DNA of 64,000 bases from Flavisolibacter longurius (GTDB taxonomy: Bacteria; Bacteroidota; Bacteroidia; Chitinophagales; Chitinophagaceae), in the NCBI GenBank assembly GCA_014163555.1, contig JACJGO010000020.1, forward strand, positions 1 to 64,000, given 5' to 3'. Position 1 is the first letter of the stretch; each line of letters begins with the position of its first letter. Positions 2,931 to 58,630 of this stretch are shown in pieces. The translations under genes were made by a program, and so were the position numbers. The notes under the pieces were generated by a model. It did no database searches, was not told the origin of the DNA, and saw nothing but the letters and a program-made list of their open reading frames with translations.

Positions 2931-3011
2931 CAGCTACGAGTTGTCAGCTTTGAGCGGCGAGCCTTTACCGGTTTCTTTTCGCTCACAGCGTATAGCTCAA
3001 CGCTCACAGCT
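2931..3011. repeat. Word-type inverted repeat between rimP and nusA
   Basis: The left arm (2931-2962) has words of the form AGCTNNGAG; the right arm (2980-3011) has GCTCACAGC, TAGCTCAAC and GCTCACAGCT. The reverse complement of the right arm lines up with the left arm at AGCT..GAG...T.AGCT....GC...GAGC. The element starts right after the rimP stop and ends 14 nt before the nusA start. The transcript could form an imperfect hairpin inside the operon. Confidence 0.6.
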
Positions 3012-3025
3012 AAAAAAACAAAGCT

Positions 3026-4273
3026 ATGGCCAGTATCAACCTGATAGAGGCATTCCAGGAGTTTAAGGATGCCGAAAACATTGACCGTCCCACACTGATG
3101 CGTGTGGTGGAAGACGTATTTAAAACGCTTATCCGTAAAAAGTACGGCAGTGATGAAACCTTTGACGTCATTGTAAACGCCGAAAAAGGTGACCTGGAAA
3201 TCTTCCGTCGCCGCAATATTGTAGACGACGACGATGTGTACAATACGCTGGAAGAAATAGAAGTGAGCGAAGCCCGGAAAATTTCGCCGGACTATGAGGT
3301 AGGCGAGGAACTCTACGAAGAAGTAAACCTGGAGGATTTTGGCCGCCGGGCTATCCTGGCTGCCAAGCAAACCCTGGCCAGCCGTATCTCTGATCTGAAG
3401 AAAAACGTTCTGGCTAAAAAATATGGCGACCGGATCGGCGAGATCATCTCGGCCGAGGTTTACCAGGTATGGAAAAAAGAGATTCTGCTGCTGGACGAAG
3501 AAGGAAATGAGCTGATCCTTCCCAAAAGCGAACAGATCCCGCAGGACTATTTCAAAAAGGGTGAGAATACCCGCGCTGTGGTGAAGAAGGTAGATATGAA
3601 AAATAATACGCCGGTAATCATACTTTCCCGTACTTCGCCTGATTTTCTGGCAAAGCTTTTGGAAATAGAAGTGCCGGAGATTTTTGACGGCCTTATTGTT
3701 ATCAAGAAGATTGTTCGTGAACCGGGTGAAAGAGCAAAAGTAGCTGTAGAATCGTACGACGACCGCATTGACCCGGTAGGCGCCTGTGTGGGTATGAAAG
3801 GTAGCCGTATTCACGGAATTGTTCGTGAGCTGAAGAACGAGAACATTGACGTTATTAATTATACCAACAATATCCAGCTCCTGATCCAGCGTTCATTGAC
3901 ACCAGCTAAGATTACCACGATGGAACTCGATACGGAAGCCCGGCACGCCAGCGTGTACCTGCGTCCCGACCAGGTTTCCCTGGCCATTGGTCGCCGTGGC
4001 GTAAACATCAAGCTGGCTTGCGAATTGACAGGCTATAACATTGATGTATACCGCGACAACGAAGGTGAAGTGGAAGAATTTGATATCGACCTGGAAGAAT
4101 TCAGCGACGAAATAGAAGGCTGGGTGATTGACGAGCTGAAGCGCATTGGTTGCGACACGGCCCGTAGTGTGCTGGACCTGACGCCGGAAGAACTGGAGCG
4201 CCGTACCGACCTTGAAAAAGAAACTATCGCTGAAGTACGCAAAGTGCTGAAGGCGGAATTTGAAAAAGAATAA
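3026..4273 (+). CDS. nusA: Transcription termination/antitermination factor NusA
   Basis: Binds RNA polymerase and nascent RNA and modulates pausing, termination and antitermination. The 415 residues contain the N-terminal polymerase-binding domain (about 1-125), the S1 domain (about 130-200), then KH1 and KH2. The motifs DPVGACVGMKGSRI (about 250) and LAIGRRGVNIKLA (about 318) are the two KH GXXG-type signatures. The C-terminus ends in a helix-hairpin-helix-like acidic segment, with no second acidic repeat as in E. coli. Second gene of the operon, flanked on both sides by word-type inverted repeats. The family is known to autoregulate its own operon in E. coli; here that is only a possibility, based on the leader hairpin. 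Confidence 0.96.
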   Translation: MASINLIEAFQEFKDAENIDRPTLMRVVEDVFKTLIRKKYGSDETFDVIVNAEKGDLEIFRRRNIVDDDDVYNTLEEIEVSEARKISPDYEVGEELYEEVNLEDFGRRAILAAKQTLASRISDLKKNVLAKKYGDRIGEIISAEVYQVWKKEILLLDEEGNELILPKSEQIPQDYFKKGENTRAVVKKVDMKNNTPVIILSRTSPDFLAKLLEIEVPEIFDGLIVIKKIVREPGERAKVAVESYDDRIDPVGACVGMKGSRIHGIVRELKNENIDVINYTNNIQLLIQRSLTPAKITTMELDTEARHASVYLRPDQVSLAIGRRGVNIKLACELTGYNIDVYRDNEGEVEEFDIDLEEFSDEIEGWVIDELKRIGCDTARSVLDLTPEELERRTDLEKETIAEVRKVLKAEFEKE

Positions 4274-4275
4274 AG

Positions 4276-4365
4276 TACGTGAGACGTTAAACGTCAAGCG
4301 TGAAACTGGGGTCTACGACAGCACGAAGTAACCCAAGTTTCACGTTTCACGCTTGACGTTTGACT
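4276..4365. repeat. Word-type inverted repeat between nusA and infB
   Basis: Two 18-bp perfectly complementary arms, AAACGTCAAGCGTGAAAC at 4289-4306 and its reverse complement at 4344-4361, sit inside longer imperfect arms built from CGTGAAAC/CGTCAAG words. The stop codon of nusA is 2 nt upstream. The same vocabulary recurs at 26264-26421. Confidence 0.8.
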
Positions 4366-4396
4366 ATGGATAAACGACGTTATTTAAAAACACTTA

Positions 4397-7354
4397 ATGG
4401 CAGAAACGACAACAACACCAAGGTTAATGGCAGCCGCCAAGGAATTCAACATCGGGAAGGACACCCTAGTTGATTTTTTGGTGGGCAAAGGGTTTAATAA
4501 AGACGACCTGAAGCCGACCGCAAAGCTAACCGAAGACATGTACAGGGCTTTGCAGAACGAGTTTCAGAGCGACAAAGTGGCCAAATTAAAGGCCGTTCAG
4601 ATTGACCTGCCCAAAGGCGCCGTTGGTGAAGCAAAAAAGAAGCGGGACGAAGAAGAAGTGCTGCGCTTTCGCAAGGAAGAGAAAAAAACGGCACCGAAAG
4701 AAACCCCTGCTCCTCCACAGGAGGAAGAGCCGCAACCTGCTCCTGTTCAGGAGGAAGTAGCGCCTATCCCGGCACCTGAGCCCGAACCGGAACCTGCTGC
4801 GCCGGAAGAAAAGCCTGCAGATGTGTCACCGCCGGCCGAGCCTGAAGTGGTGAAACCCGATACGCCGGAAATTGAAGGCCCCAAGGTGATTGGTAAAGTG
4901 GACCTGTCGGCGATCGACTCCTCTACCCGCCCGAAAAAAGGCATTAAAAAAGCCAAGGAAGCAGAGGAGCCACAGCCTGCGCCTGCTGCTGAAACCGAAC
5001 AACCTGTTGAGGAACCTGTACTGCCTATAGAGGAACTGCCGGCTTCCGTTGTGGAGGCTGTTGCAGAAACCAATGTTATTGACCTACCGGAAACCAAAGA
5101 AGACGAACCTGTCATCGAAAACATCAAAGCGGAAAAATTGGAAGGCCCGAAGATTTTAGGTAAGATAGAGTTGCCGGTAGATAGTGATACCCGACCCAAA
5201 CAACTGGATGAAAAGCGCAAGCGCAAGCGCATTCCCATCGAGAAAAAAGGCCCGACGGCTTTCCGCGAAGGTGGACAGCAAGCTGGCGCCCAGCAGGGAA
5301 GCACCGGACAGGGTGGTGGTGGCCGTTTTACACCGCAGAAAAACGTGGGAGGACAGCAAGGGGGCGCCAACCGCGGACAAGGCGGTGGCGGACGATTCTC
5401 TCCACAACGCCGGGGCGATAACCGCGGTCCCCGCGAAGACCGCCAGATCGACGAAAAAGAAATTCAACGGAAAATACAGGAAACGCAAGCCAAGCTTTCG
5501 GGTGGTGGCGGCAGAGGCAACAAACGTACTGCCAAGCGCCGCGACCGCAGAGCTGAAATGGCCGAAGGCGCAGAAGGAATTGACAACAAGCTGCAGGTAA
5601 CCGAATTTATTTCGGTGAGTGAGCTGGCCAACCTCATGGACGTTTCGTTTGCCGAAGTAATCAGCAAGTGTATGAGCCTGGGCATCATGGTGTCCATCAA
5701 CCAGCGCCTTGATGCGGAAGTAATTGAACTGGTAGCCTCCGAGTTTGGTTTCGATGTGGAGTTCATCGACATGGAAAAGCAACTGGAGATGGAAGAGGAA
5801 GAGGTAGAGGATGATGCCGACAGCCTGCAACCGCGTTCGCCCATCGTTACTATCATGGGTCACGTTGACCACGGTAAAACCTCTTTGCTTGATTACATCC
5901 GGAAAGCCAACGTGGTAGCCGGTGAAGCAGGTGGTATCACCCAGCATATTGGCGCCTACCAGGTGAACCTGCCCAACGGCAAAGACATTACCTTCTTGGA
6001 TACGCCGGGTCACGAAGCGTTTACCGCCATGCGTGCCCGTGGTGCCAAGATCACCGATATTGCCGTGATTGTGATAGCCGCCGATGATGCCATCATGCCG
6101 CAAACCCGTGAGGCTATCAGCCACGCACAGGCTGCCAACGTTCCGATGATCTTTGCCATCAACAAGATTGATAAAGACGGTGCCAATCCGCAAAAGATAT
6201 ACGAGCAACTGGCCGGTATGAACATCCTGGTGGAAGCCTGGGGTGGTAAGTTCCAAAGCCAAGAGCTTTCGGCCAAACAGGGACTCAACGTTGACCTGTT
6301 GCTGGAAAAAATTCTGCTGGAAGCCGAACTGCTGGAGCTGAAAGCCAACCCGGACAGGGAAGCCACCGGTTCTATTATTGAGGCTACACTGGACAAAGGC
6401 CGTGGTTATGTGGCTACCATCCTTGTACAGAACGGTAGCTTACACGCTGGTGACCTGGTAGTATCGGGTCAGCATTATGGCCGCGTAAAAGCCATGATGA
6501 ACGAACGGAACAAGCGTGTTGACCAGGCAGGTCCTTCTACACCTGTGTTGATTCTTGGTTTGAACGGTGCGCCGCAAGCGGGTGAAACCTTCCGTGTGTA
6601 TGCCGATGAAGGCGAAGCCAAAGACATTGCCAACCGCCGTGCACAGATTCTGCGTGAGCAGGGTATGCGTGCCAAGAAACACATTACGCTGGATGAAATT
6701 GGTCGTCGTTTGGCCCTGGGTAACTTTAAGGAGCTGAAGGTGATCATCAAAGGTGACGTGGATGGTTCGGTAGAAGCCCTGAGTGACTCCTTGCAAAAAC
6801 TTTCCACACAGGAAATCCTCGTTAGCGTCATTCATAAAGGTGTAGGTCAGATCAATGAAAGTGACGTGGTGCTGGCCGAAGCTTCGGATGCGATCGTGAT
6901 TGGCTTTAACGTGCGTCCTTCACTGCAGGCGAACCGCCTGGCCGAAAACGCCGGCATCCAGATCAAAACCTACTCCATCATTTACACCGCGATCGATGAG
7001 ATCCGCAGTGCGATGGAAGGGATGCTGGAACCGAAAGTGCAGGAGAAGATCATTGGTAACGTGGAGATCAAAGAGGTGTTCAAGTTTGACAAGGCTACCG
7101 TTGCCGGTTGCCAGGTGATTGAAGGGCGCATCAAGCGTGACAGCAAGATCCGCCTGATCCGCGACGGTATCGTCGTGTATCCGACCGGTGAAGGGCAAAG
7201 CGCCGAACTGGGCTCACTGAAGCGTTACAAGGACGATGCGAAGGAAGTGCTCATGGGTATGGAGTGTGGTTTGACTGTGAAGAACTACACCGACATCAAA
7301 GTGGGCGACATCATCGAAGCGTACGAAGAAGAAGAAGTAAAACGGACGTTGTAA
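4397..7354 (+). CDS. infB: Translation initiation factor IF-2
   Basis: GTPase that places initiator tRNA on the 30S subunit and promotes subunit joining. The 985 residues comprise an N-terminal IF2_N domain (about 1-55), a long Pro/Glu-rich linker, a Gly/Arg/Gln-rich stretch (about 290-380), then the G domain with GHVDHGKT (about 488-495), DTPGHE and NKID, and the C-terminal beta-barrel and tRNA-binding domains. The linker contains a motif twice: [10 protein letters not shown]...STRPK (about 160-182) and [17 protein letters not shown] (about 249-268). Last gene of the operon and followed by a strong terminator. Confidence 0.97.
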
Positions 7355-7385
7355 GCCCCCACCTAACCTCCCCCAACAGGGGAGG
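7355..7385. repeat. C/G-rich hairpin repeat directly after infB
   Basis: Directly after the infB stop a C-rich stretch ends in CCTCCCC (7367-7373), loop CCAACA-like, and GGGGAGG (7379-7385). Sequences of this CCCC-TAAC-CCCC-AAA-GGGG kind are common between genes in Bacteroidota as far as I recall; I know no function. It precedes the true terminator by 40 nt. Confidence 0.5.
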
Positions 7386-7424
7386 AACAGCCAAGGCACA
7401 GACCCTGCTTTTGCATGATATAAC

Positions 7425-7467
7425 AAAGCCTCAGGCAATCGATTTGTCTGAGGCTTTTTCTTTTTTG
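7425..7467 (+). terminator. Intrinsic terminator of the infB operon
   Basis: A stem of about 12 bp with one G-U pair (arms 7428-7438 and 7444-7454), a 5-nt loop TCGAT, and a T-rich tail TTTTTCTTTTTT. A-rich sequence on the left side may allow function in both directions. Confidence 0.88.
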
Positions 7468-7634
7468 TAACCACCGGGAGATTAACGATTGAACTTCTGT
7501 TGCGTCGCACACGTCGGCGTTCAGAACAGGTTTGTACAAAAAGGTTTCTCGCAGAGGCGCGGTGTATGCGGAGTAAAAAAACCTCAGCGCTCCCTGCGCT
7601 TCAGCATGAAATCATGGATAAAGAAAGTCTCGGT

Positions 7635-9188
7635 TCAAGCAGGCTTTTGTGCAGGGCCAATTCCGCCTTGAGGAGTAGGAGTGCCAAAATACTTTCCAAC
7701 ATAGGGCAGCCGTTGCAATTCTTTCCGCTCTACCAAACCAATAAACCAGGCGAAAATGAAAAAAAGTACAGCGCCAAAGGCCCCATTGAACCAGGCATTC
7801 AGCCCGATTAGTTCAAACAAAGAATGGATCCCATAAAGCATCACACAAATAACAATATAGGCCACCAGTTTTTTCCAGGCATACGGCACCCGGTAATTTT
7901 TCTGTCCCCACACAAATGAAATGACCATCATGCTTCCATAGCAAAAGAAGGTAGCCCAGGCGCAGGCATAATAACCAAAATAAGGAATCAGCAGTGCATT
8001 GATGCCAAGCGTAATGGCAGCACCGATCAGGGTGATGTAAGCACCTGCTATGGTTTTATTGGAAAGTTTGTACCAGATAGAGAGGTTGTAATAAATACCG
8101 AGGAACATGTTGGCCAGCAGCAAAATTGGAACTATGCCCAGGCCCTGCCAGTAAACCGGGTTAGAGATAAAATACTTCCAGACATCGAGGAAAAGCACCA
8201 CGGCAAGGAACATGAAGCAAACCGTAATGACAAAAAACTTCATTACCCGTGCATAGATGCGTTGCGGTTGCTGCCCTTGTGCTGCCGAAAAAAAGAAGGG
8301 CTCTGCTGCCATGCGAAAGGCCTGCACGGAAAGGGTAATCAACATCGAGAGTTTGTAACAGGCACTGTAGATGGCCACTTCAACCTTGGCTTCGTTTCCA
8401 TTGGCCACCGGTGCCAGTTTGTTAAGCATAATCCGGTCGAAGGTTTCATTGATCATGCCTGCAAAGCCGGCAAGAATCAGCGGCGCCGAATAAACAATGA
8501 TCTCTTTCCAAAGCTTTGCATTGAACTGCAGGCGAAAGGAGAAAAACTCTTTGGAGAGAAAGAGCAGCGTAAAAAAAGCTTGCAGCAGGTTGGCCAAAAG
8601 AATATAGCCAACGCCAAAGCTTTTGTCGTACCAAACACCAATAAAACCGTCAGGATCTTTTTCCTGGATGACCGGGCAAACCGATAGAAAAAAGATCGTT
8701 AGCCCGATATTGATCACAATGCCGGCAATGCGAATAGCGGCAAACTTGCGGGGCTTGCCCTCGTACCGCAACTTGGCGAAGGCCAGCGCTGCCAGGGCGT
8801 CCAGGGCAATGATAAAAGCTGCCATGGTGAGGTATTCCGGGCGGTTAGCGATGCCCAGCAGGTCGGCCAGCGGCTGCCTGAACAAAAGCAGGATAGCTGT
8901 AAACAAAACCGTGCTGCCCAGGAGCGAAAGCGTAGCGGTGCTGTACACTTCTTTTTCGTCTTCTGCCGTTTTTGAAAAACGGAAATAGGCTGTTTCCAGT
9001 CCATAAGTAAACAGGATGTTCAGGAAAGGGATGGCCGCATAGATAAGGCTCATCTCACCATAAAACGTTTCCCGCAACACACTGGCGTTAGTAAGATAGG
9101 GAGTAAGAAGATAGTTTAAAAAGCGGGCAGCAATCGATGAAACGCCATACCACAATGTCTGACCTGCTAATTTCTTTATGCCGCTCAA
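7635..9188 (-). CDS. Polysaccharide biosynthesis / lipid-linked oligosaccharide flippase-like protein (MATE/Wzx type)
   Basis: Inner-membrane protein of 517 residues with about 12-14 hydrophobic segments spread along its length, the pattern of the MOP (Wzx/MurJ-like) exporter superfamily. The start KKLAGQTLWYGVSSIAARFLNYLLTPYLT is the typical first transmembrane region of this group. The likely role is flipping a lipid-linked sugar across the membrane; the substrate cannot be read from sequence. No glycan cluster surrounds it. The start codon is TTG (9186-9188), with no in-frame ATG nearby. The C-terminal end QGGIGPAQKPA is low-complexity. Confidence 0.82.
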   Translation of the reverse strand: MSGIKKLAGQTLWYGVSSIAARFLNYLLTPYLTNASVLRETFYGEMSLIYAAIPFLNILFTYGLETAYFRFSKTAEDEKEVYSTATLSLLGSTVLFTAILLLFRQPLADLLGIANRPEYLTMAAFIIALDALAALAFAKLRYEGKPRKFAAIRIAGIVINIGLTIFFLSVCPVIQEKDPDGFIGVWYDKSFGVGYILLANLLQAFFTLLFLSKEFFSFRLQFNAKLWKEIIVYSAPLILAGFAGMINETFDRIMLNKLAPVANGNEAKVEVAIYSACYKLSMLITLSVQAFRMAAEPFFFSAAQGQQPQRIYARVMKFFVITVCFMFLAVVLFLDVWKYFISNPVYWQGLGIVPILLLANMFLGIYYNLSIWYKLSNKTIAGAYITLIGAAITLGINALLIPYFGYYACAWATFFCYGSMMVISFVWGQKNYRVPYAWKKLVAYIVICVMLYGIHSLFELIGLNAWFNGAFGAVLFFIFAWFIGLVERKELQRLPYVGKYFGTPTPQGGIGPAQKPA

Positions 9189-9226
9189 CGAGAATGATTT
9201 TTTATAAAGTGAACAAATTTATGGAA

Positions 9227-9372
9227 TAGCAAGTAGTGAGTAGTAAATAGCGAGCTGGGTTTTAGCACTGGAAACAAATCTTTTCACTTTCTTCCTGAAA
9301 TTGCAAGAAGAGAACTCTCAGGAAATCGGAACTGAATGGCTACTCTTCACTCGCTATCCACTACTCGCTATT
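9227..9372. repeat. Word-type inverted repeat between the flippase and mauG-like genes
   Basis: The left arm (9227-9255) reads GAATAGCAAGTAGTGAGTAG and similar words; the right arm (9338-9372) carries complementary words (CTCGCTATCC, CTACTCGCTATT). The first 14 positions of the arms match with one difference. The TAG stop of the MauG-like gene is part of the word GAATAGCGAG at the element's right edge. The same vocabulary recurs at 41994-42149. Confidence 0.7.
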
Positions 9373-10426: not shown

Positions 10427-10446
10427 AGAACCGAAAGACTTGCCTG

Positions 10447-10848: not shown

Positions 10849-10867
10849 GAATAATTGAAAGTGAAAA

Positions 10868-10917
10868 TTCAAAAGTAAAAAATTATGCCCTGGTGTTTTT
10901 GAGTTTTTACTTTTGAA
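10868..10917. repeat. Inverted repeat in the arfB/dtd divergent gap
   Basis: TTCAAAAGTAAAAA (10868-10881) and its exact reverse complement (10904-10917) form a 14-bp stem with a 22-nt loop. It occupies almost all of the 73-bp gap between two divergent start codons, so it may overlap both promoters. The same AT-rich vocabulary appears at 54157-54312. Confidence 0.75.
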
Positions 10918-11880: not shown

Positions 11881-11934
11881 AAGTCAGAATTCAAAATGTA
11901 AGCTGTATTGCGTTATCATTTTGAATTCTGACTT
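11881..11934. repeat. 18-bp inverted repeat upstream of the DinB-like gene
   Basis: AAGTCAGAATTCAAAATG (11881-11898) and its exact reverse complement (11917-11934) surround an 18-nt loop. It begins 15 bp before the DinB-like start codon, between it and the carB stop. Another word stretch of a different kind (TTGCCAATTGCCAGTTGC, about 11983-12000) follows, next to the carB stop and without a complementary arm. Confidence 0.85.
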
Positions 11935-14850: not shown

Positions 14851-14940
14851 AAGTTTACACGTTCACAAGTTTACGCGTTCACGAGTTTGTTTGACTGCCA
14901 CGACAACTCGTGAACAAGTGAACTTGTAAACTCGTGAACT
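14851..14940. repeat. Word-type inverted repeat upstream of carB (8-nt words)
   Basis: The left arm (14851-14890) is a tandem of 8-nt words GTTTACAC, GTTCACAA, GTTTACGC, GTTCACGA. The right arm (14903-14940) is the reverse complement of a similar tandem with different word endings. Over 36 aligned positions the arms differ at 7, nearly all at the variable word positions. It lies in the leader of carB, ending 11 bp before the start codon. A shorter copy of the vocabulary occurs at about 26308-26342. Confidence 0.85.
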
Positions 14941-17511: not shown

Positions 17512-17593
17512 GCTTATATGCAGATATGCGGATGTGAAAGAATAGGAGAGGTAAGGAATTACTAACTACAAACTACAAACGACAAACTATAAA
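17512..17593. repeat. Word stretches between the M23 peptidase and bcp
   Basis: Two vocabularies stand side by side: ATATGCAGATATGCGGATGTG-type words (about 17517-17537) right after the stop codon, and AACTACAAACTACAAACGAC words (about 17565-17590) just before the bcp start. No complementary arm of either is present. The first is shared with the 58523-58630 element. Confidence 0.5.
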
Positions 17594-18057: not shown

Positions 18058-18162
18058 AATATTGGATAGTAGATAGTAGAATATTAAGATCGGACACATC
18101 ACAAATGATTGTTTGAGCCTGCTATCAAAATATCCAATATCTAAATTTCTACTATCATTCTC
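18058..18162. repeat. Word-type inverted repeat between bcp and birA
   Basis: The left part (18058-18085) has ATATTGGATA and GATAGTAGAA; the right part (18122-18160) has their reverse complements but in scrambled order. It starts right after the bcp stop and ends exactly at the birA stop, filling the convergent gap. Confidence 0.65.
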
Positions 18163-24907: not shown

Positions 24908-24945
24908 GGCCAATTGGCAATGGACAATATGCAATAGGCAAAACC
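24908..24945. repeat. Single-arm word stretch after mscS
   Basis: CAATTGGCAATGGACAATAT and further CAATAGGCAA words begin directly after the mscS stop. No complementary arm lies in the 54-bp convergent gap. The same vocabulary occurs beside the carB stop (about 11983-12015). Confidence 0.45.
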
Positions 24946-25556: not shown

Positions 25557-25753
25557 AAACACGGATTTTTACGCAGATTACACGAATTGGAGTTCTTTCG
25601 TACGGTCATTCTTTCTGCTGGTGCAGGCGTGTGTATAGTTGTAGCGATACCGCCAACATTCTGCATTTCGTTTCAGCCCCTTGTCAAAACCTTGAAGGGA
25701 AAGTCAAATTATAGTAAACAAAATCCGTGTAATCTGCGTAAAAATTCGTGTTT
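25557..25753. repeat. 32-bp inverted repeat before the merR stop
   Basis: Arms at 25557-25588 and 25722-25753 are complementary at 30 of 32 positions around a loop of 133 nt. Both differences are T/C changes that keep a G-U pair in one strand or the other. The words contain TTTACGCAGATTACACG. The TAA stop of the MerR-type gene lies in the right arm. The 133-nt loop shows no ORF or terminator I trust. Confidence 0.85.
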
Positions 25754-26263: not shown

Positions 26264-26421
26264 ACGTGAACGGTCAAACGTGAAAAGTGAAACGAAAGGG
26301 TTTACAAGTTCACGGGTTCACTTGTTCACAAGTTAAACAGCCCATATAAGCTATCGCAAGAAAAATGGAAAATAAAATGATACTACATTTTCACTTCTCA
26401 CGTCTCACGCTTGACGTGCCT
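26264..26421. repeat. Nested word-type repeat between MerR gene and next gene
   Basis: Outer arms: 26264-26293 with CAAACGTGAAAAGTGAAAC, and 26388-26421 with the reverse complement of ACGTCAAGCGTGAG-type words. Inside lies a separate run of 8-nt words GTTCACGG, GTTCACTT, GTTCACAA (about 26317-26340). The outer vocabulary equals that between nusA and infB, and the inner equals that upstream of carB. Confidence 0.75.
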
Positions 26422-29356: not shown

Positions 29357-29803
29357 ATGTGCTCTTATAAACGCAAAACATGGCAGGAGAAAATGACCGA
29401 TGGTCGCCAGCCGCATGTTGAAATTGCCAACAAGGGTTTCGCCGGTATTGCACCCGGGCAGAAAATGCTGATCCCAACACCAAAGCTAATTGATGCTTAT
29501 ATCCGCCAGATTCCTGAAGGGAAGGAGGTGAATAGCCAAACACTGCGAAAAGACCTGGCTCTTGAAAACGGTGCCGAAGTAACCTGCCCGCTTACGACCG
29601 GCATTTTTCTGCGGATTGTAGCTGAAGCCGCCCAGGAGGCGTATGAGAAAGGAACACCAGCCGAAAAAATAACCCCGTTCTGGCGGGTGATTGATGAAAA
29701 ATCGCCCATTGCAAAGAAGCTCACGTTTGGAACGCAATTCTTAAAAGCACAACGCAAAAAAGAAGCAATTGGTGAGTGGTCAGTGGTGAATGGTGAGTTG
29801 TGA
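29357..29803 (+). CDS. MGMT/ATL-like domain protein lacking the reactive Cys
   Basis: 148 residues. The central part IPEGKEVNSQTLRKDLALENGAEVTC (about 51-76) and PFWRVID (about 117-123) recall the DNA-binding domain of O6-methylguanine methyltransferases (IPxGKV..T...LA, PCHRV). The alkyl-acceptor Cys is replaced: PCHR corresponds to PFWR. So it may be a non-catalytic alkyltransferase-like sensor; that is inference from motif similarity. The start is uncertain (ATG 29357, or 29393). The last residues (about GEWSVVNGEL) and the stop come from a word repeat. Convergent with pheS. Confidence 0.65.
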   Translation: MCSYKRKTWQEKMTDGRQPHVEIANKGFAGIAPGQKMLIPTPKLIDAYIRQIPEGKEVNSQTLRKDLALENGAEVTCPLTTGIFLRIVAEAAQEAYEKGTPAEKITPFWRVIDEKSPIAKKLTFGTQFLKAQRKKEAIGEWSVVNGEL

Positions 29804-29836
29804 GTGATTTCCTTTATTCACCATTCACCACCTGAT
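29772..29836. repeat. Word-type inverted repeat at the MGMT-like / pheS convergence
   Basis: Core arms GTGGTGAATGGTGA at 29783-29796 and the reverse complement at 29818-29831, with further words GGTGAGTGGTCAGT on the left. The left arm lies inside the 3' end of the MGMT-like gene and provides its stop codon. Confidence 0.85.
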
Positions 29837-30881: not shown

Positions 30882-31026
30882 AGGAGGAGTCGGAATTCAG
30901 GGGCCAGAATTCAGGAGAGTAAGCAGTATTGCAGTTAGCTGTATGCAGTGGGTGGGAATCCGCATCTTATCATGCTTATTCCTCATTGCTGCCCTCCTGA
31001 CTCCTGAATTCTGGCTCCTGTCTCCT
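30882..31026. repeat. Word-type inverted repeat between pheS and the M16 operon
   Basis: 15-bp perfect core arms GCCAGAATTCAGGAG (30903-30917) and its reverse complement (31001-31015) within longer arms of GAATTCAGGAG words. Between them is another word set (CAGTATTGCAGTTAGCTG). It lies between divergent genes. Confidence 0.8.
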
Positions 31027-40004: not shown

Positions 40005-40199
40005 GATGGTGGGTGGCAGATGATGGATGACAGTAAAACGATACGCAACGTTTCTTCTTTTTCCAATAAAAAAGCTGGTTTCTTGTCAAACCAGCTTTTT
40101 TATTGTATTCCTTTTCAGGATGAGAGACAGCTGACAAAAACAGAAGTTTACCCCTTCCAATCATCCAAAAAACGGAAGGCTCCTGTCATCCGCCATCTA
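40005..40199. repeat. Word repeat flanking a terminator between the 7TM gene and acyl-CoA dehydrogenase
   Basis: The left arm GATGATGGATGACAG (40019-40033) and the right arm at 40183-40197 (reverse complement GATGGCGGATGACAG) enclose an ordinary terminator at 40068-40101. The right arm abuts the stop of the acyl-CoA dehydrogenase gene. Confidence 0.65.
40068..40101. terminator. Bidirectional terminator
   Basis: A 14-bp perfect stem AAAAAAGCTGGTTT with its reverse complement, loop CTTGTC, for two convergent genes. Confidence 0.92.
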
Positions 40200-41993: not shown

Positions 41994-42149
41994 AGCGAGT
42001 GGTAAGTAGTTTATAGCAAGCCGCCACTACGCTTTTGGGTTATTACTGTTTAAAAATTTTCTATCGATTGGCATGCAAAAGGATGACCTGAGTTTAAGTA
42101 GTGCAAACTGCATTTAGGAGCTACTCGCAACTAACTACTCACTATTTAC
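41994..42149. repeat. Word-type inverted repeat at the marR 3' end
   Basis: Left 41994-42020 (GAGTGGTAAGTAGTTTATAG words), right 42120-42149 (complement of GAGTAGTTAGTTGCGAGTAG words). The MarR gene's last codons AGT AAA TAG lie in the right arm. Same vocabulary as at 9227-9372. Confidence 0.65.
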
Positions 42150-52552: not shown

Positions 52553-52578
52553 GCGTTTTCTGGATATAAGAATAGTGA

Positions 52579-52610
52579 CGAAAAAAGTGGCCCGAGAGCC
52601 ACTTTTTTCG
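52579..52610. terminator. Bidirectional terminator
   Basis: A 13-bp perfect stem CGAAAAAAGTGGC with its complement, 6-nt loop, for the convergent GH3 and ricT genes. Confidence 0.9.
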
Positions 52611-52632
52611 TTTATCAACCGTTCAAATTAAT

Positions 52633-54096
52633 TTACTCCGCCGGCTTTTGATTGTCTTTGTTACCACCATGCTGCGGACGCTGTTGCTGCTGGCCACCTT
52701 CCGGCCGCTGTTGGGGTCTTCCGCCTTGTGGACGCTGCCCGCCGCCTTGCGGCTTTTGCTGGTTCTGGCCACTGTTGCTGCGTTGCTGCACATTACCGGG
52801 CTTTGGTTGTTGTCCGCCTGGTTGTTGCCGCTGCTGCTGCCCACCGCCCTGCTGTTGCCGTTGTGGGGGTTGCGTTTGGCCCGGTCCTTTTTTCTGAACG
52901 GGAAGATTGTTTGGTTTTCCTCCCTGCGTATTGCCGGGTGCCGGTAGCTTGTTCCCTCTCGACTGCTGGCCCTGGCGCTGTTCACGGCCTTTGTCGCGGC
53001 GTTTTTTGTCGGCTTTCTCCAGGCTCCGTAAGCTGATATGGCCCACCACATCCACAAATTCCGGTTCCACTTCTTTCACCTTGCTGGATACCACTTCCAC
53101 CGCTTCCAGTTCATCCGGAACAGTTCCCTGCATATTCAGGGATTTAATTTTACGTACCCGTTCGATGGTAAGCGGGTATTGCTTGTTGCTTTGCGGCAGC
53201 ACATACCACATCAGGTTTTTAAAGATGTCCTTTTTGATAAGCGTAGCCGTACCCCTGGTTACCTGCAGCATATCAGCATTCTCCGGAAAGCCCTGTAAGG
53301 CATCGAGATAGGTATCCAGTTCGTAGTTCAAACAGCATTTCAGCCGGCCGCACTGTCCACTTAGTTTGGTTTGATTGATGGACAAATTCTGATAACGGGC
53401 TGCTGCCGTATTAACCGATTTAAAATCGGTCAGCCAGGTGGCGCAGCAAAGCTCACGGCCGCAGGAACCAATTCCACCCACTTTACCGCTTTCCTGGCGG
53501 GCACCAATTTGCCGCATTTCCACCTTTACGCGGAACTCAGAGGCGAAAATCTTGATCATTTCGCGGAAGTCCACCCGGTCGTCAGCAATGTAATAAAACG
53601 TTGCTTTTTTGCCGTCGGCCTGGAATTCCACCTCACTCATCTTCATGTTCAGATTCAGCTGCCGGGCAATGGCGCGGCTGCGAATGAGGGCTTCGGCTTC
53701 ACGGGCTTTGTTGGTGCGCCAAAGGTCCAGGTCACGGTCGGTGGCCCGGCGCAAAATCTTTTTCATTTCCGGCGCCATTTCGTTGACGCCGCGTTTTTTT
53801 AGCTGTAAGCGTACCAGTTCACCGGTCAGTGAAACTTCGCCCACATCAAAACCGCTGACACCTTCTACGGAGATCAGGTCTCCTTTTTCCAGTTGGTGCA
53901 GCATTGAATTGCGATAAAACTCTTTCCGGCTGCCTTGGCTAAAGCTGACCTCCACTACGCGGCAGGTATCAGCATCGTTAATTGGTAAATTGCGCAGCCA
54001 ATCGTATGTATTCATCCGGTTACAACCGCCGGTACTGCATCCGCCATTGCTTTTGCATCCATTGGGTTTACCCGTGCCACAAGAACCACATCCCAT
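52633..54096 (-). CDS. ricT: PSP1-domain protein RicT-like
   Basis: In Firmicutes RicT (YaaT) forms a complex involved in RNA processing and carries iron-sulfur-type Cys residues. 487 residues: a Cys-rich start (C3, C6, C14, C20, C25), PSP1 domain (about 60-280) with GSCGRELCCATWL (about 206-218) and GQCGRLKCCLNYE (about 242-254), then a low-complexity Gln/Pro/Gly-rich tail (about 360-487). The preceding gene on this strand is holB, the same neighbour as in Firmicutes. The tail is expected to be disordered. Confidence 0.88.
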   Translation of the reverse strand: MGCGSCGTGKPNGCKSNGGCSTGGCNRMNTYDWLRNLPINDADTCRVVEVSFSQGSRKEFYRNSMLHQLEKGDLISVEGVSGFDVGEVSLTGELVRLQLKKRGVNEMAPEMKKILRRATDRDLDLWRTNKAREAEALIRSRAIARQLNLNMKMSEVEFQADGKKATFYYIADDRVDFREMIKIFASEFRVKVEMRQIGARQESGKVGGIGSCGRELCCATWLTDFKSVNTAAARYQNLSINQTKLSGQCGRLKCCLNYELDTYLDALQGFPENADMLQVTRGTATLIKKDIFKNLMWYVLPQSNKQYPLTIERVRKIKSLNMQGTVPDELEAVEVVSSKVKEVEPEFVDVVGHISLRSLEKADKKRRDKGREQRQGQQSRGNKLPAPGNTQGGKPNNLPVQKKGPGQTQPPQRQQQGGGQQQRQQPGGQQPKPGNVQQRSNSGQNQQKPQGGGQRPQGGRPQQRPEGGQQQQRPQHGGNKDNQKPAE

Positions 54097-54156
54097 GCTA
54101 TCTCTAAAATTTATTCAGTTAATAATAGAGGTAATGGGCAGAAAGGAGAAGGGAAA

Positions 54157-54312
54157 GTCAGGGTAAGTCAAAAGTCAAAAGGTACCGTTCAAAACCTTTG
54201 GAACATACGCTTTTCATATAGGTTTACAGGCGAAACAAACAACACCCGTTTCAGTAAAATGCCATTGCACCAGGGTGCTGCTTTTTACGTTTTACTTTTG
54301 AGTTTTACTTAT
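54157..54312. repeat. Word-type inverted repeat in the ricT/holB gap
   Basis: The left words GTAAGTCAAAAGTCAAAAGG (54164-54183) are loosely complementary to the right words TTTTTACGTTTTACTTTTGA (54283-54302). The vocabulary is like that at 10868-10917. Between the arms nothing else is recognised. Arms are weaker than elsewhere. Confidence 0.5.
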
Positions 54313-54402
54313 TTATACTGAGTATAGAATAACTTTCAATTCCTTCTTCACAATGCCGATAACCTCGGATATATATTGATCCTCTTTCGAGGGAATAAGC
54401 AA
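54313..54402 (-). other. Short open frame, possible gene remnant
   Basis: A 29-codon frame (TTG at 54402, sense reading about LLIPSKEDQYISEVIGIVKK) runs from within the gap after holB and ends at 54313. It continues upstream as an open frame across the holB stop region. Its regular hydrophobic pattern looks like real protein, but no start or family is recognised. Confidence 0.25.
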
Positions 54403-54440
54403 ATATAATTTTTTTAGGTTAGCGACATCAAATTGGTTTC

Positions 54441-55661
54441 TTAGACCGAAACCACCACCCCGTTTTTAACAATGTGGAAGAGCTTGATGGTCAGTGCATG
54501 AAAGAGGATTTTGGCGTTGGCATTGCGTTCAATGTAGTAGGAGGCTTTGTCCAGTTCTTCGGCAATGGCTTCTTTTTGCTCTACCGAAATCTGCTTGTTT
54601 AGTTTTAAAGCAAAATCCCGTTCGCCGGTGGACATGGCTTCCAGAAGGCTTTCCTGCAGCGTGCCGGAACTGATCTGAAGACGCAGCGCCTGTTCCAGCA
54701 GGTGAATAAAATAGCGCAGAAACTGTTTTTGCGCCTCGCGGCCCAGGCGGGCAAGTTCTTCAATCACTTTTACCTGTGCGGCCGGACCGGTACGTAAGAT
54801 GGCATTGAGCCATTCCCGCAGCAGGTTAAAATAATCTTCACCGGCATGCTGTAACAGTTGCAGCGCTTCGCGGTAGTTGCCCTCACAGGCATTGGCAATC
54901 AGCTTGGCCTGGTCGGGGCCAATGCCGGCTTTTGCGGCAAGCGTTGTTTGCACGTCTTCTGGCTGCAGGGCGGGAATCTTTACCAATTGGCAGCGGGAAA
55001 GAATGGTGTTGAGAATAGCGCCTTCATTTTCGGCCACCAAAATGAACAAGGTGTCTGCCGGCGGTTCTTCAATCAGCTTCAGCAGCTTGTTGCCTTCTTT
55101 TCCCAGGTACTCCGGCATCCAGAGTACCAGGATCTTGTACCCGCTTTCAAAGCTTTTAAGATTGAGTTTTCGGAGAATGTCATTGCATTCCTGTGCCGTA
55201 ATATTTCCCTGCTTGTTTTCGGCACCAATAAACTGCAGCCAGTCGTACACATTGCCATAAGGCAGTTGCTGGATAAATTCCCGCCATTCTGTGATGTAAT
55301 CGGTGCTCAAAGGAGGAGACCCTGCCTTTTTTGTTATCACTGGGTAGGAATAATGAATATCCGGGTGCACCATGCCGGCAGCCTTTTGAAAGGAGGCTTG
55401 TTTTTGCATCCAGGCATCCGCTTCTGCCGGAGTAGCTGGCAGCTTTACTTCTACCGGTTCGCCAAAAAGGGATGCTTCCGCAGAGGCACCGGAGGCAGTG
55501 GGCAGCAGGGAAACATAATTGGCAAAAGCAAATGCCAGCGGCAAAGCCCCGCTACCTTCTTTGCCTAAAAAAAGAAGGGCATGGCTGATGCGGTTGTGCC
55601 GGACCATTTCTACCAGGTGTTGCTTTACTTCCTGCTGACCAATAACATCGTTGAATAACAT
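54441..55661 (-). CDS. holB: DNA polymerase III subunit delta-prime-like protein
   Basis: Clamp-loader subunit. 406 residues. The N-terminal AAA+ domain starts MLFNDVIGQQEVKQHLVEMV and has RISHALLFLGKEGSGALPLA, where the Walker A Lys-Ser/Thr is missing, as is known for non-ATPase delta-prime subunits. The sensor region ILNTILSRCQLVKIPAL is present (SRC motif about 219-221). C-terminal helical domain. ricT follows downstream on the same strand. Confidence 0.92.
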   Translation of the reverse strand: MLFNDVIGQQEVKQHLVEMVRHNRISHALLFLGKEGSGALPLAFAFANYVSLLPTASGASAEASLFGEPVEVKLPATPAEADAWMQKQASFQKAAGMVHPDIHYSYPVITKKAGSPPLSTDYITEWREFIQQLPYGNVYDWLQFIGAENKQGNITAQECNDILRKLNLKSFESGYKILVLWMPEYLGKEGNKLLKLIEEPPADTLFILVAENEGAILNTILSRCQLVKIPALQPEDVQTTLAAKAGIGPDQAKLIANACEGNYREALQLLQHAGEDYFNLLREWLNAILRTGPAAQVKVIEELARLGREAQKQFLRYFIHLLEQALRLQISSGTLQESLLEAMSTGERDFALKLNKQISVEQKEAIAEELDKASYYIERNANAKILFHALTIKLFHIVKNGVVVSV

Positions 55662-55709
55662 CGTCTGAACCGGGATTTATAGGATTTGTAGGATGCTTGA
55701 AATTAAAGA

Positions 55710-55737
55710 AGGCCGTCCGCCAACTGGCGGACGGCCT
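55710..55737 (-). terminator. Terminator after the glutathione peroxidase gene
   Basis: A perfect 12-bp stem AGGCCGTCCGCC with its complement and loop of 4, followed on the minus strand by T-rich sequence. It is flanked by a pair of words (GGATTTATAGGATTTGTAGG at about 55675-55694 and complementary words at 55741-55768). Confidence 0.8.
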
Positions 55738-55787
55738 CAAATATCCTGATAAATCCATTACATCCCACCTATCGGGGTTTAGACAAT

Positions 55788-56309
55788 TTAATTCAGGTGA
55801 ACCGTGATTTCTTCGCTCAGCGGGCTCACTTTGCTTGGAAATACTTTTACCAGTTTACCTTTTTCATCCACCAGGAACTTAGTGAAATTCCATTTTACCA
55901 CCGGGTCGGGAGTGCCCATTTTTTTGGCTTCCGCCGTCAGGTATTTGAAAAGTTCATGGGCATCGTCGCCTGTCACCGAAACTTTTTCCGCCATCGGGAA
56001 GGTAACGCCGTAATTTTTTTTGCAGAAAGCACCGATTTCTTCATTGCTACCGGGCTCCTGATCATTAAAATTATTGGCCGGGAAACCAACGATCACCAGT
56101 TTGTTCTGGTACTTTTCATAAAGCTTTTGCAGGTCGGCATATTGTGGCGTGTATCCGCATTTGGATGCTGTATTTACCACCAGCACTTTTTTGCCTTTAA
56201 ACTTTGCGAAATCGATTTCCTTCCCGTCAAGACCAGTCACTTTAAAATCATAAAAGGAAGCACCTGATAGCATAATCGAAAGAATTGAAGCGAGAATAAG
56301 GGTTTTCAT
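55788..56309 (-). CDS. Glutathione-peroxidase-family thiol peroxidase
   Basis: 173 residues with an N-terminal signal segment (about 1-18). The peroxidatic Cys51 lies in NTASKCGYTPQY (other bacterial members also use Cys, not selenocysteine). Further motifs: VGFPANNFNDQEPG (about 75-88) and VVKWNFTKFLV (about 137-147, with the catalytic Trp-Asn). Such bacterial enzymes mostly use thioredoxin, which is inference here. Confidence 0.93.
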   Translation of the reverse strand: MKTLILASILSIMLSGASFYDFKVTGLDGKEIDFAKFKGKKVLVVNTASKCGYTPQYADLQKLYEKYQNKLVIVGFPANNFNDQEPGSNEEIGAFCKKNYGVTFPMAEKVSVTGDDAHELFKYLTAEAKKMGTPDPVVKWNFTKFLVDEKGKLVKVFPSKVSPLSEEITVHLN

Positions 56310-56392
56310 GAAATAAATTTTTATTCGTTAGCTGTATAACAGTATAAAGATAAGTTGGTTGAATGGTGGACGAATTCAAATCTTTTTTAAAA

Positions 56393-57799
56393 TTAAGGCC
56401 GCCATTCGTATGCACCCAGGTCCGGGGCCGATCCGGCAGGCCGGGGTTTCCCGTCAAGATCCCATTGCACACCGGCAGCGGTGCCGGCATTGATGGCGGG
56501 TGATCCTTCTTTGGGCCGGAAATTATAAAAACGTTCTGCCGTGTTGATGCTGTCAAAAAGCGGTTCGCCGGTGACGGCGCCATTGATGGTGGCACCTGCC
56601 GGAGCCGTTTGCATCCGCCATAAGACGTTATCAAAAAGTACGGAATAGCTGGTGTTTCCCTGCTTTAGCGTCACCACTTCATCCTTGACAAACCCATTTT
56701 CTTCACCCCAGAAAATACAGTTGCGGAAGGTAGCGGAAAGATCGTTTACGGTAATGCTATTGCTTTGGGTGATGAAATTTGTAAGCAGCAGCACCGGGTC
56801 TTTATGTTGCACAAAACTGTTGGAAAAAGAAGCAAAGGTGCAGTGCGTAAACTGGTAGTTGCCACCAAGTGCCAGAACGGTATTCTTGCTGCAATTGGAG
56901 ATAAGCAGGTTACGGGCCGTAATGCTGGTATTGATGCCCAGCAGGCCGGCATCGTACGCATTGTCAATGATGGTTTCGTTCAGCGTAAGCTTTGTGCCTG
57001 ATGTTGCGGGGTTGGTAACGACAATGCCCTGGTAAGCGTTTTTGATAATGGCATAGTTCAGCACATTGGATTTGCTGCTGCCGGTAAAAAACAGTCCGGG
57101 GTAAGAAGCTGGAAAATCGCGGTAAGGTAGATCCAGCCTGTCGCCGGTAAACACCACTCTTGTGCTGTCGTAATGTTCACCATTCACCTGCAACGAGCCG
57201 TGAACAACAAAGGGGGCATCGGCATGCATGTACACCTTACAGCCTTTGTTGATGATTAGGGATGCTGTGGTATCTACGGTAAGGCCGCCGAGGATCACAT
57301 ATGGCAGATCGTTGTTCCAGGTTTGCTGCCCGGTGATGGTATGGTTTCGTAAGAAGTGTGCATTCTTTCCAAAGGCTTCTAACTGTACCCAGTTGCTGTT
57401 GCCATTGTAAGAAATTTCAATACTGTCTCTTACTACAAAGGGCAGGTTTTGCGCTGTAGGATTGATGCTGACCGTAACAAAAACATAGATGCTGTCGTTG
57501 CCCGGCACTTCAACGTTGGCAATCTGCGGGCCCGGTACGCCGTCGGCATTGATGCGGAAAGGAGAGGAGCCGCCACCACCCAGCCGAACCGAAGAAAGGC
57601 GAACGCCGTCTTTGTTGTTGTTGATGATTTTTACTACCTGCGAAACCGAACCTGCCGTGGTAAACAACGTATCAAAATGAAGGGTATCTACGCTGGGCTG
57701 AAGCAGGGCACTGCTGTCAGACGTAAAGGATTCTTTCCGGCATGAAAAGAAAAAAAGGAGCAGTGCAGCCAGGCAGAGAAGGTTTTTCAACAGGTTCAT
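56393..57799 (-). CDS. Lipoprotein with right-handed beta-helix-like region
   Basis: 468 residues from ATG 57799. The N-terminal LAALLLFFFSC (Cys20) is a lipobox-like signal, so it is probably an outer-membrane lipoprotein. From about residue 170 there are repeating short beta segments (VVTNPATSGTKLTLNETIIDNAYDAGL and ISNCSKNTVLALGGNYQFTHCTFASF) characteristic of parallel beta-helix proteins. Near the end, LDGKPRPAGSAPDLGAYEWRP. Substrate or ligand unknown. The longer frame to 57835 overlaps comF. Confidence 0.82.
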   Translation of the reverse strand: MNLLKNLLCLAALLLFFFSCRKESFTSDSSALLQPSVDTLHFDTLFTTAGSVSQVVKIINNNKDGVRLSSVRLGGGGSSPFRINADGVPGPQIANVEVPGNDSIYVFVTVSINPTAQNLPFVVRDSIEISYNGNSNWVQLEAFGKNAHFLRNHTITGQQTWNNDLPYVILGGLTVDTTASLIINKGCKVYMHADAPFVVHGSLQVNGEHYDSTRVVFTGDRLDLPYRDFPASYPGLFFTGSSKSNVLNYAIIKNAYQGIVVTNPATSGTKLTLNETIIDNAYDAGLLGINTSITARNLLISNCSKNTVLALGGNYQFTHCTFASFSNSFVQHKDPVLLLTNFITQSNSITVNDLSATFRNCIFWGEENGFVKDEVVTLKQGNTSYSVLFDNVLWRMQTAPAGATINGAVTGEPLFDSINTAERFYNFRPKEGSPAINAGTAAGVQWDLDGKPRPAGSAPDLGAYEWRP

Positions 57800-57816
57800 A
57801 CGGGGATAAAAATACA

Positions 57817-58518
57817 TCAGTGACTCGAAAAACAAAGTGTGGCCACGCTCAGTTTTACATTGTCGGCTTGCAACAGCACCGCGCCGCAGGCTTCCAGCGT
57901 AGCGCCGGTTGTGATAACATCGTCCACCAACAGAAGGTGCTTTTGTTCAATGGCAGACGGATTTTTTAGCTCAAACCGTCCTTCCATATTCAGCCAGCGT
58001 TCTACACGGTTTTTCTTTGTCTGGCTCTCGGTATGTGTGGTTCTGATGACGGCATCCTGCAAAACCGGTTTTTGCAAAACAGAAGCTATGCCTTCGCATA
58101 AAACGGTTGCCTGGTTATACCCCCGCTTGCGTTCTTTGGCCGGAAACAAGGGAAGCGGGATTAAGGCATCCACATACCGAAACCGGTTGGAGGCAGTCAG
58201 TGCATGTCCCATCAGTCTTCCCAGGTAAAGTCCTACCTCTTTGTTGCCCCTGTATTTCAACTGGTGCATCAGGTGCTGCATCATTGATCCTTTGGTAAAA
58301 TAGTATTGTGCGGTAGCTGATGTAAGTGGCAACCGGCCCCAATAGATTTTTTCCACCGGATTGTTGGGATAAAGATGAAACTCGGTTTTGGGCAATGCGG
58401 CCAGGCAACGAAGGCAAAGATGATGATCGGCTTCCAGCACATCGGTTCCGCAGGTTTCACATACATGCGGAAACAGGAAGTGCAGCATTGATTCCTTTAT
58501 GGCGTTAAGCAGCAGCAT
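57817..58518 (-). CDS. comF: ComF-family phosphoribosyltransferase-like protein
   Basis: 233 residues. An N-terminal zinc site with CETC (C20, C23) and CLRC (C35, C38) is followed by a phosphoribosyltransferase domain with LLVDDVITTGATLEACG (about 192-208). ComF is needed for DNA uptake in competent bacteria, by an uncertain mechanism. Its start is separated from radA by a word-type repeat. Confidence 0.92.
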   Translation of the reverse strand: MLLLNAIKESMLHFLFPHVCETCGTDVLEADHHLCLRCLAALPKTEFHLYPNNPVEKIYWGRLPLTSATAQYYFTKGSMMQHLMHQLKYRGNKEVGLYLGRLMGHALTASNRFRYVDALIPLPLFPAKERKRGYNQATVLCEGIASVLQKPVLQDAVIRTTHTESQTKKNRVERWLNMEGRFELKNPSAIEQKHLLLVDDVITTGATLEACGAVLLQADNVKLSVATLCFSSH

Positions 58519-58522
58519 GGTT

Positions 58523-58630
58523 AATATGCGGATATGCAGATGTGCGAATCTGCGAATAATAGCTTCACTAATTTAATTGAATTTCTTCATCCGCACATCC
58601 CCAAATTCGCATATCCTCTTATCGCATCTC
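58523..58630. repeat. Word-type inverted repeat between radA and comF
   Basis: Left 58523-58557 (ATATGCGGATATGCAGATGTG and GCGAATCTGCGAAT) and right 58588-58630 (complement of GGATATGCGAATTTGGGGATG). The right arm starts at the TGA of radA. The whole gap between these two same-strand genes is the element. Confidence 0.75.

What the first reader, a model, noticed from the sequence alone, without database searches (positions are those of the whole stretch)
2931..58630. Family of locus-specific word repeats with complementary arms at gene 3' ends
Seen directly: at least fifteen gaps (2931-3011, 4276-4365, 9227-9372, 10868-10917, 11881-11934, 14851-14940, 17512-17593, 18058-18162, 24908-24945, 25557-25753, 26264-26421, 29772-29836, 30882-31026, 40005-40199, 41994-42149, 54157-54312, 58523-58630) carry short words repeated with variation. 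In most of them the second half is the reverse complement of the first. Words differ between loci, but the two arms inside one locus match each other. Ordinary insertion of a fixed repeat would give the same sequence everywhere. So an inference is that the arms are kept complementary within each locus, for example by template switching or hairpin-directed correction. Possible roles are 3'-end mRNA stabilisation, transcription termination, or a structure read by a nuclease. I know no named family for it.
Basis: partly seen in the sequence, partly recalled or inferred. Interest (0 to 1): 0.82.

Follow-up and report, generated by a model that had tools for sequence, protein, structure and literature searches.

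The report
Mirrored seven-letter word repeats between genes
Many gaps between genes in this bacterium hold short seven- or eight-letter DNA words repeated in two mirror-image runs; the same layout, nearly always pointing inward, turns up in distant bacteria, and the papers found describe it only piecemeal.

Summary
Of the 17 listed gaps, 13 have arm complementarity beyond dinucleotide shuffles and 11 have a 7/8-nt repeat (both p<=0.01). In six genomes of the genus 99 of 673 gaps hold such an element. The same layout occurs in Acidobacteria, Cyanobacteria, Chloroflexi, Alphaproteobacteria and predicted viral contigs; in 51 of 53 cases the word points inward.

The inferred mechanism, arms kept complementary by template switching or hairpin-directed correction, gets little support. 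Shuffling unit order in one arm lowers complementarity only from 17.7 to 15.8, so the arms are mainly two arrays of one word. Whole elements and single arms are dispersed in trans, three of four words tested are confined to some species, and word changes at orthologous gaps are about as frequent as independent gain and loss predicts (3 against about 2.5).

Best reading: several families of REP/MITE-like repeats built of short word arrays. Mobiliser and function are unknown. Partial precedents exist (Geobacter, Xanthomonas). The inward polarity is unexplained and the most interesting part.

The parts
2931..3011 (.). inverted word arrays, GAGCGGC/GCTCACA type, rimP-nusA gap
   Evidence: arm p<0.005, lag p 0.035; 9 of 17 genomes of the genus have both signals at p<=0.04 here
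4276..4365 (.). inverted heptad arrays GTSARAC-like, nusA-infB gap
   Evidence: arm 21 vs 7.8 shuffled, lag 18/21; G009 has octad GTTCACAA instead
9227..9372 (.). inverted heptad arrays AGTAGTR/GAGTAGY
   Evidence: same words in G009
10868..10917 (.). inverted array TTCAAAAGTAAAAA, divergent gap
11881..11934 (.). inverted array AAGTCAGAATTCAAAATG; G009 has a plain terminator-like hairpin here (by eye)
14851..14940 (.). inverted octad arrays GTTYACRN
   Evidence: lag 8; family counts
17512..17593 (.). two different arrays (ATGCRGAT; ACAAACTAC): no complementarity
   Evidence: arm p 0.92, lag 19/21
18058..18162 (.). inverted arrays ATAGTAG/ATATTGG; different words in G009
24908..24945 (.). single array RGCAATW-like, no second arm
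   Evidence: arm p 0.26, lag p<0.005
25557..25753 (.). strong inverted repeat (arm score 28) around a long loop, no 7/8-nt period; also in G009
26264..26421 (.). composite element: GTSARAC arms, internal GTTYACRN octads, shared core; member of a dispersed family
29772..29836 (.). inverted heptad arrays GTSARTG; overlaps the end of the gene call 29357-29803
30882..31026 (.). inverted heptad arrays GAATTCAG/GGAGTCA, divergent gap; different words in G009
40005..40199 (.). arms GATGACAG-like around an ordinary terminator-like hairpin; G009 has GTSARAC arms
   Evidence: best stem may be the inner hairpin
41994..42149 (.). arrays GAGTRGT-like on both sides, stem not above shuffles; same words in G009
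54157..54312 (.). arrays GTMAAAA-like on both sides
   Evidence: arm p 0.025, lag p<0.005
58523..58630 (.). inverted octad arrays RTGCRRAT; same words in G009

Best explanation
These are several co-existing families of small non-coding intergenic repeats, working like REP or MITE elements, whose body is a tandem array of a degenerate 7- or 8-nt word. Usually two arrays of one word flank a loop, each with the word pointing inward. Shown: copies of whole elements and of single arms at unrelated gaps of one genome; perfect tandem expansions; word repertoires that differ between congeners; matching mainly at the level of the word; near absence from coding DNA. Consistent with the data: independent gain and loss at orthologous gaps. 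Inferred: new elements arrive or are rebuilt as one-word units, arrays then drift by slippage and recombination between arrays, and selection removes insertions in genes, leaving them packed behind stop codons. There the RNA can fold into a hairpin that may protect or insulate 3' ends, but no function is shown. The enzyme that spreads them is unknown.
For: Composite family: 13 further copies covering at least 120 of 176 bases at 68-81% identity in G000, with a similar loop core by eye. Exact 25-mer arm at 20 loci in G017, stacked with other word arrays, only 2 of 20 with an inverted partner within 300 nt. Repertoire: MGCTNCA 90 matches in G017, 0-6 in each of 17 others; GTTYACRN in 7 of 18 genomes; GTSARAC in 8 of 18; GTSARTG is wider, 16 of 18. 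Perfect expansions: 18 GTCAAAC units (G009:C9:16878), 22 GTCAATG units (G007:C14:4273), more than 20 copies of a 16-bp dimer (G017:C1:1854733). Period 7 (74), 8 (22), 9 (3) among 99 elements. Unit-order test. Arrays with 17 of 21 matches at lag 7/8: 2 in 556 kb coding, 36 in 120 kb of gaps. Elements in ++ and +- gaps begin a median 6 nt after the stop, 53 of 61 within 30 nt, against 23 nt and 51 of 87 for non-word hairpins. Convergent 26/112, tandem 62/452, divergent 11/109. Orthologs: 10 of 13 co-occupied G000/G009 gaps keep the word, 3 differ (my judgement from the scores), about 2.5 expected by chance co-occupancy.
Against: No target-site duplication, mobiliser or precise empty site was found. 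Y1 transposase neighbourhoods carried word arrays in 3 of 18, and genome G002 (given as 100% complete) has no Y1_Tnp hit yet 12 GTSARTG matches. Unit order is nearly independent for MGCTNCA (89 identical pairs vs 69 expected, p=0.03) and the octad (16 vs 12, p=0.2), which copy-and-decay alone does not predict. The fixed inward polarity is not explained. Placement away from promoters is weak: convergent exceeds divergent (p=0.011), but tandem does not exceed divergent by the joint criterion (p=0.35).
Confidence: 0.55

Rival explanations
1. Arms are kept complementary in place by template switching or hairpin-directed correction.
For: Arms keep or change their word together at co-occupied orthologous loci (a biased comparison). 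A modest excess of ordered matching. Two loops looked similar while arms differed (gap 2928 G000/G006; 18056), by eye only.
Against: Unit-permuted arms are nearly as complementary. In the clearly different-word loci the loop scores are close to those of shuffled loops. Different-word loci are no more frequent than chance re-occupancy predicts.
Confidence: 0.1
2. De novo RNA hairpins held by selection (3'-end stability or insulation of neighbouring genes), with 7/8-nt periodicity arising from polymerase slippage.
For: Position just behind stop codons, low MFE in 12 of 17, co-occurrence at orthologous gaps (odds ratio 5.8, p=8e-4), period signal in 13 of 17 genomes at rimP-nusA, perfect tandem expansions.
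Against: Does not explain exact shared arms at unrelated loci, differing repertoires or inward polarity in other phyla. Co-occurrence is also expected from plain inheritance, and by the joint threshold rimP-nusA is occupied in 6 of 17 genomes, not clearly above the 27 of 107 G000 gaps.
Confidence: 0.2
3. Paired binding sites of DNA- or RNA-binding proteins (IHF/HU-like, as proposed for Geobacter metallireducens).
For: Degenerate words with fixed core positions (GTSARTG, GTSARAC, MGCTNCA); precedent of paired octa/heptamer sites on opposite strands (PMC2700814, passages read).
Against: Many unrelated words in one genome, differing between congeners, would need many proteins.
Confidence: 0.08
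4. Intrinsic or bidirectional terminators.
For: Highest share in convergent gaps; at 11881 G009 has a plain terminator-like hairpin where G000 has a word hairpin.
Against: Detector hits (loop 3-9 nt plus T-run) are as frequent in convergent word gaps as in others (13/26 vs 48/86, p=0.66) and rarer in tandem word gaps (7/62 vs 104/390). Long-looped stems were outside the detector. Present inside the rimP-nusA-infB cluster.
Confidence: 0.07

Closest known systems
Paired 'global regulator' sites of Geobacter metallireducens, classes 1-3 (PMC2700814; passages and legends read; figures and supplements not seen)
   Same: Tandem octa- or heptanucleotide repeats in two copies on opposite strands, spacing variable in classes 1 and 2, several word classes in one genome; the proBA gap holds a different conserved sequence in G. 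sulfurreducens. Class 3 consensus MTYCTGA resembles the GAATTCAG word here (my comparison).
   Different: The passages give 24, 21 and 8 pairs per class; here tens of matches per word and more words per genome. The passages read give no account of polarity, dispersal of arms, or other phyla for classes 1-3.
GGGAATC heptamer repeats of Xanthomonas and GGGGAYT of Nostoc (PMC4692102; passages read)
   Same: Heptamer arrays often within 50 bp of stop codons, rare between divergent genes, 70 and 75 convergent pairs on opposite strands in two Xanthomonas genomes; length and sequence variation between species.
   Different: One word family per genome was studied, interpreted as G-quadruplex forming; most words here lack G-tracts. 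Few pairs in Nostoc.
TAACTGA direct repeats of Beggiatoaceae (PMC4679880; abstract, introduction, Bacteroidetes section and passages read)
   Same: Heptamer arrays shared by distant phyla including Cyanobacteria and Bacteroidetes; horizontal spread suspected.
   Different: Direct repeats mostly before start codons, one inverted case in the main genome.
REP/REPIN elements with RAYT transposases (PMC3733652, passages; others from listing only)
   Same: Multi-copy extragenic palindromes, several families in some genomes.
   Different: REPs are 20-40 bp palindromes tagged GTAG or CGTC, often near RAYT genes; here arrays of words and no clear RAYT link.

Membership tests
REP/REPIN (RAYT-mobilised) | multi-copy extragenic palindrome | tested here: met
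REP/REPIN (RAYT-mobilised) | short fixed palindrome with GTAG or CGTC tag | not tested
   No tag scan was run; the bodies seen are 7/8-nt arrays, not one fixed sequence.
REP/REPIN (RAYT-mobilised) | association with a RAYT (Y1) transposase | tested here: inconclusive
   Word arrays in 3 of 18 stretches of about 2 kb around Y1_Tnp matches, no background rate taken; G002 lacks a Y1_Tnp hit but has 12 word matches.
MITE | inverted ends with copies at unrelated loci | tested here: met
   composite family
MITE | target-site duplication and autonomous partner | tested here: inconclusive
   No precise empty site seen by eye among 25 presence/absence gaps; a partner was not searched for beyond Y1_Tnp.
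Intrinsic terminator | short-looped stem followed by T-tract | tested here: not met
   tandem word gaps 7/62, near the shuffled rates 0.118 and 0.123; convergent word gaps 13/26 do hold terminators, as other convergent gaps do (48/86)
Paired tandem hepta/octamer sites (Geobacter, Xanthomonas) | two tandem 7/8-nt arrays on opposite strands, variable spacing | tested here: met
Paired tandem hepta/octamer sites (Geobacter, Xanthomonas) | same word consensus | tested here: inconclusive
   By eye only: GGGAATC is not among the elements printed; GAATTCAG resembles Geobacter class 3. No scan was run.
Rfam families | match above gathering score | tested here: not met
   only a tRNA in the window

The most novel reading that the evidence does not exclude
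An unrecognised, phylum-crossing process lays mostly G-rich 7/8-nt words inward from both sides of a gap, assembling each arm from a small vocabulary of interchangeable units. It would be an enzyme-templated terminal-addition or copying activity with a slow-changing genome-specific template, which would explain near-independent unit order, one word on both sides, differing repertoires and fixed inward polarity together.
Probability: 0.12. Interest if true: 0.92.

Novelty: new variant of a known kind. Interest (0 to 1): 0.62.

Why it matters
If the pattern is one phenomenon, a sizeable share of the intergenic space of some environmental bacteria is made by an undescribed repeat-spreading process. 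The inward polarity across phyla and predicted viral contigs is a sharp, testable rule that any mechanism must explain. It also warns annotators that intergenic hairpins in such genomes are not by themselves evidence of terminators or conserved RNAs.

Tried and rejected
Hairpin correction as the main cause: set aside on the unit-permutation test, which still leaves a modest ordered excess. Loop conserved while arms change: looked real by eye at 2928 and 18056, but loop scores of the different-word loci 4274 and 40882 (G009) and 7391, 10612, 80294 and 117434 (G006) lie close to shuffles or had loops too short to score, so dropped; 2928 was not in that table's co-occupied set. Terminators. Y1 transposase link: no clear support. 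Excess occupancy at rimP-nusA: 9 of 17 by p-values but 6 of 17 by the joint threshold, so not claimed. Plasmid search with the rimP-nusA region: no match. Rfam: only the tRNA. RepRanger paper (PMC12306157, passages): nothing on word arrays in the passages. Controls with caveats: the reversed-read control is not independent, since GTGAGTG reads the same backwards (this also explains equal control counts for some genomes; 10 control matches for MGCTNCA in G009 are unexplained); the complement control is 2 of 80 in genome loci but 16 of 80 in viral loci, probably because an inverted array half-matches it. Counts are not all independent: one search used all 90 and all 36 listed windows (some overlap within one array); one search used windows I picked from the printed lists, roughly one per array (42 for G009, whose list was cut, and 31 of 40 for G000). 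Rows dropped: gaps under 40 or over 320 bp, under 40 or over 400 bp.
Full report
Setting. The window is part of a 5.66-Mb genome in 58 contigs with 17 held congeners. The main contig of congener G016 has the same length as a Cnuella takakiae record (5,585,063 bases), so the family is probably Chitinophagaceae (Bacteroidota; inference). The first listed gaps are rimP-nusA and nusA-infB; these gene names are my reading of the sequence, and no family search was run on those three proteins.

Observation. Each of the 17 stretches was compared with 200 dinucleotide shuffles: complementarity p<=0.01 in 13, word repeat p<=0.01 in 11, MFE z<-2.5 in 12. Four stretches lack convincing arms at that level (17512, 24908, 41994, 54157). 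In 325 gaps of 40-400 bp from about 685 kb, arm score >=16 occurs in 11.1% against 0.4% of shuffles: convergent 23.6%, tandem 7.5% (++) and 13.1% (--), divergent 2.0% against 0.8%. Palindromic gaps show autocorrelation peaks at 7, 14 and 21 nt and at 8 and 16 nt; coding DNA lacks those at 7, 8, 14 and 16 (21 is a multiple of its period of 3).

Anatomy. With a joint threshold (arm >=11, lag >=15 of 21), 99 of 673 gaps of 40-320 bp in six genomes of the genus hold an element: ++ 35/251, -- 27/201, convergent 26/112, divergent 11/109; period 7 in 74, 8 in 22, 9 in 3. Convergent exceeds divergent (p=0.011); tandem does not by this criterion (62/452 vs 11/109, p=0.35). Some of the 99 are ordinary hairpins beside an array. 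Dense 7/8-nt repeats are nearly confined to gaps: at 17 of 21 matches, 2 in 556 kb of called genes against 36 in 120 kb of gaps. In ++ and +- gaps the 5' arm starts a median 6 nt behind the called stop codon (53 of 61 within 30 nt), against 23 nt for hairpins without words (51 of 87). Some elements enclose an ordinary terminator (C11:106238 and 40005).

Arms are not copies. If one arm were copied from the other, the order of its unit variants would be mirrored. Permuting the units of one arm and rescoring the gap lowers complementarity only from 17.65 to 15.85 over 84 elements, with 10 of 84 at p<=0.05 and 35 at p>=0.5. A cruder arm-only version gives 17.2 to 14.3 over 90, 12 at p<0.05 and 67 below p 0.5. 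So the sides share a word first of all, with a modest excess of order.

Polarity. In most word families the word points toward the gap centre: 75 family-loci in, 14 away, over 15 patterns (one without loci) named after their usual orientation: GTSARTG 19:1, octad GTTYACRN 12:2, MGCTNCA 6:0, GTSARAC 15:6, GATATTGG 5:2, RGCAATW 1:2. Independently of any naming, the 5' arm has G>C in 71 and C>G in 19 of 99 elements (9 ties), against 69 and 65 of 148 control hairpins (14 ties; p=4e-5 without ties).

Other bacteria. A partner array of >=16/21 within 300 nt was found in 21 of 80 (complement control 2), on the inward side in 19. By title 11 of the 21 are outside Bacteroidota (5 Acidobacteria, 2 Chloroflexi, 2 Cyanobacteria, 2 Alphaproteobacteria), all inward; the two outward ones are Bacteroidales. 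In viral contigs (scan also capped, 80 loci held) 32 have a partner, from 30 contigs, all 32 inward, but the complement control is 16 of 80. For GTSARAC in viral contigs 2 of 18, both inward. Within Bacteroidota the pattern is patchy: 20 of 395 genomes. Gap surveys without a word query, in four of the eight genomes opened, all of which hold the pattern: Pyrinomonadaceae 3 of 51 gaps (0.0 expected; one of the three is the locus that led to this genome), Fischerella 6 of 25 (0.6), Bauldia 2 of 37 (0.8, so chance), Mesorhizobium 0 of 29. The first two use several different words.

Evolution. Between G000 and G009, 107 comparable gaps: 13 with an element in both, 14 only in G000, 11 only in G009, 69 in neither (odds ratio 5.8, p=8e-4). 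In 10 of the 13 I judge the word the same, with loops alike in some; in 3 (4274, 18056, C4:40882) both arms differ. After setting aside the 10, chance co-occupancy predicts 17 x 14 / 97 = 2.5. Against G006 (57 gaps; 11 in both) 6 keep the word, 4 differ (one of them, C4:80294, hardly a word element) and 1 is unclear; chance predicts about 2.2. So no switching mechanism is needed. At rimP-nusA 9 of 17 genomes have both arm and lag signals (p<=0.04 each) and 13 of 17 the lag signal, with several unrelated words, but only 6 of 17 pass the joint threshold.

Spread. A composite element (GTSARAC arms, octads, a core like AACTATCG) has 13 further copies over at least 120 of 176 bases at 68-81% identity in G000 and more in G009. 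In G017 one exact 25-mer arm is found at 20 loci, stacked with other words and often followed by a shared terminator module; 2 of 20 have an inverted partner within 300 nt, and of 14 with a called upstream gene 9 lie in its sense direction. Repertoires differ between congeners for three of four words; GTSARTG is in 16 of 18. Perfect expansions of 18 to more than 20 units show slippage or unequal exchange. Unit order is partly canonical (GTSARAC in G017, 205 identical pairs vs 118; GTSARTG in G009, 88 vs 62) and nearly free in others (MGCTNCA 89 vs 69, octad 16 vs 12). Both copying of arrays and reshuffling of units seem to go on.

Function. Word elements rarely coincide with detectable terminators in tandem gaps. 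A hairpin at the mRNA 3' end remains possible but is untested. Tolerance in gaps behind stop codons would suffice to explain most of the placement.

Literature. Eight searches of an open-access library found precedents in Geobacter metallireducens (several words), Xanthomonas/Nostoc and Beggiatoaceae (one word each), but no listed paper that treats multi-word inward-pointing arrays as one class. Subscription papers are mostly not held; the 2007 survey of long simple repeats was seen only as cited in PMC4679880.

Noticed in passing
L028:3547-3827 (G000 C4:43547-43827); similar ends at C2:37919 and C2:79440: A dispersed element of about 280 bp with G/C-rich inverted ends of about 34 nt and an internal terminator; many matches in G009, and a sub-part repeated in G005. 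Window 7355-7400 looks related by eye.
   Followed up: partly
G017 loci L245-L264: A shared terminator module (AAAGCACTCC...GGAGTGCTTTT) follows the word arrays at many of these loci; L250 and L253 share a block of about 250 bp.
   Followed up: no
G000 contigs C1, C3 against C4 and C11: Word elements are unevenly spread: 17 of 72 gaps in C4 and 12 of 68 in C11, but 3 of 56 in C1 and 4 of 50 in C3.
   Followed up: no
C11:114781-114914 and its G009 ortholog: The outermost unit next to the downstream gene is kept while the rest of the array changed from an octad to a related heptad word, suggesting partial array replacement.
   Followed up: no
window 112-1797: Type I restriction-modification M subunit (hsdM) at the window start.
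   Followed up: no
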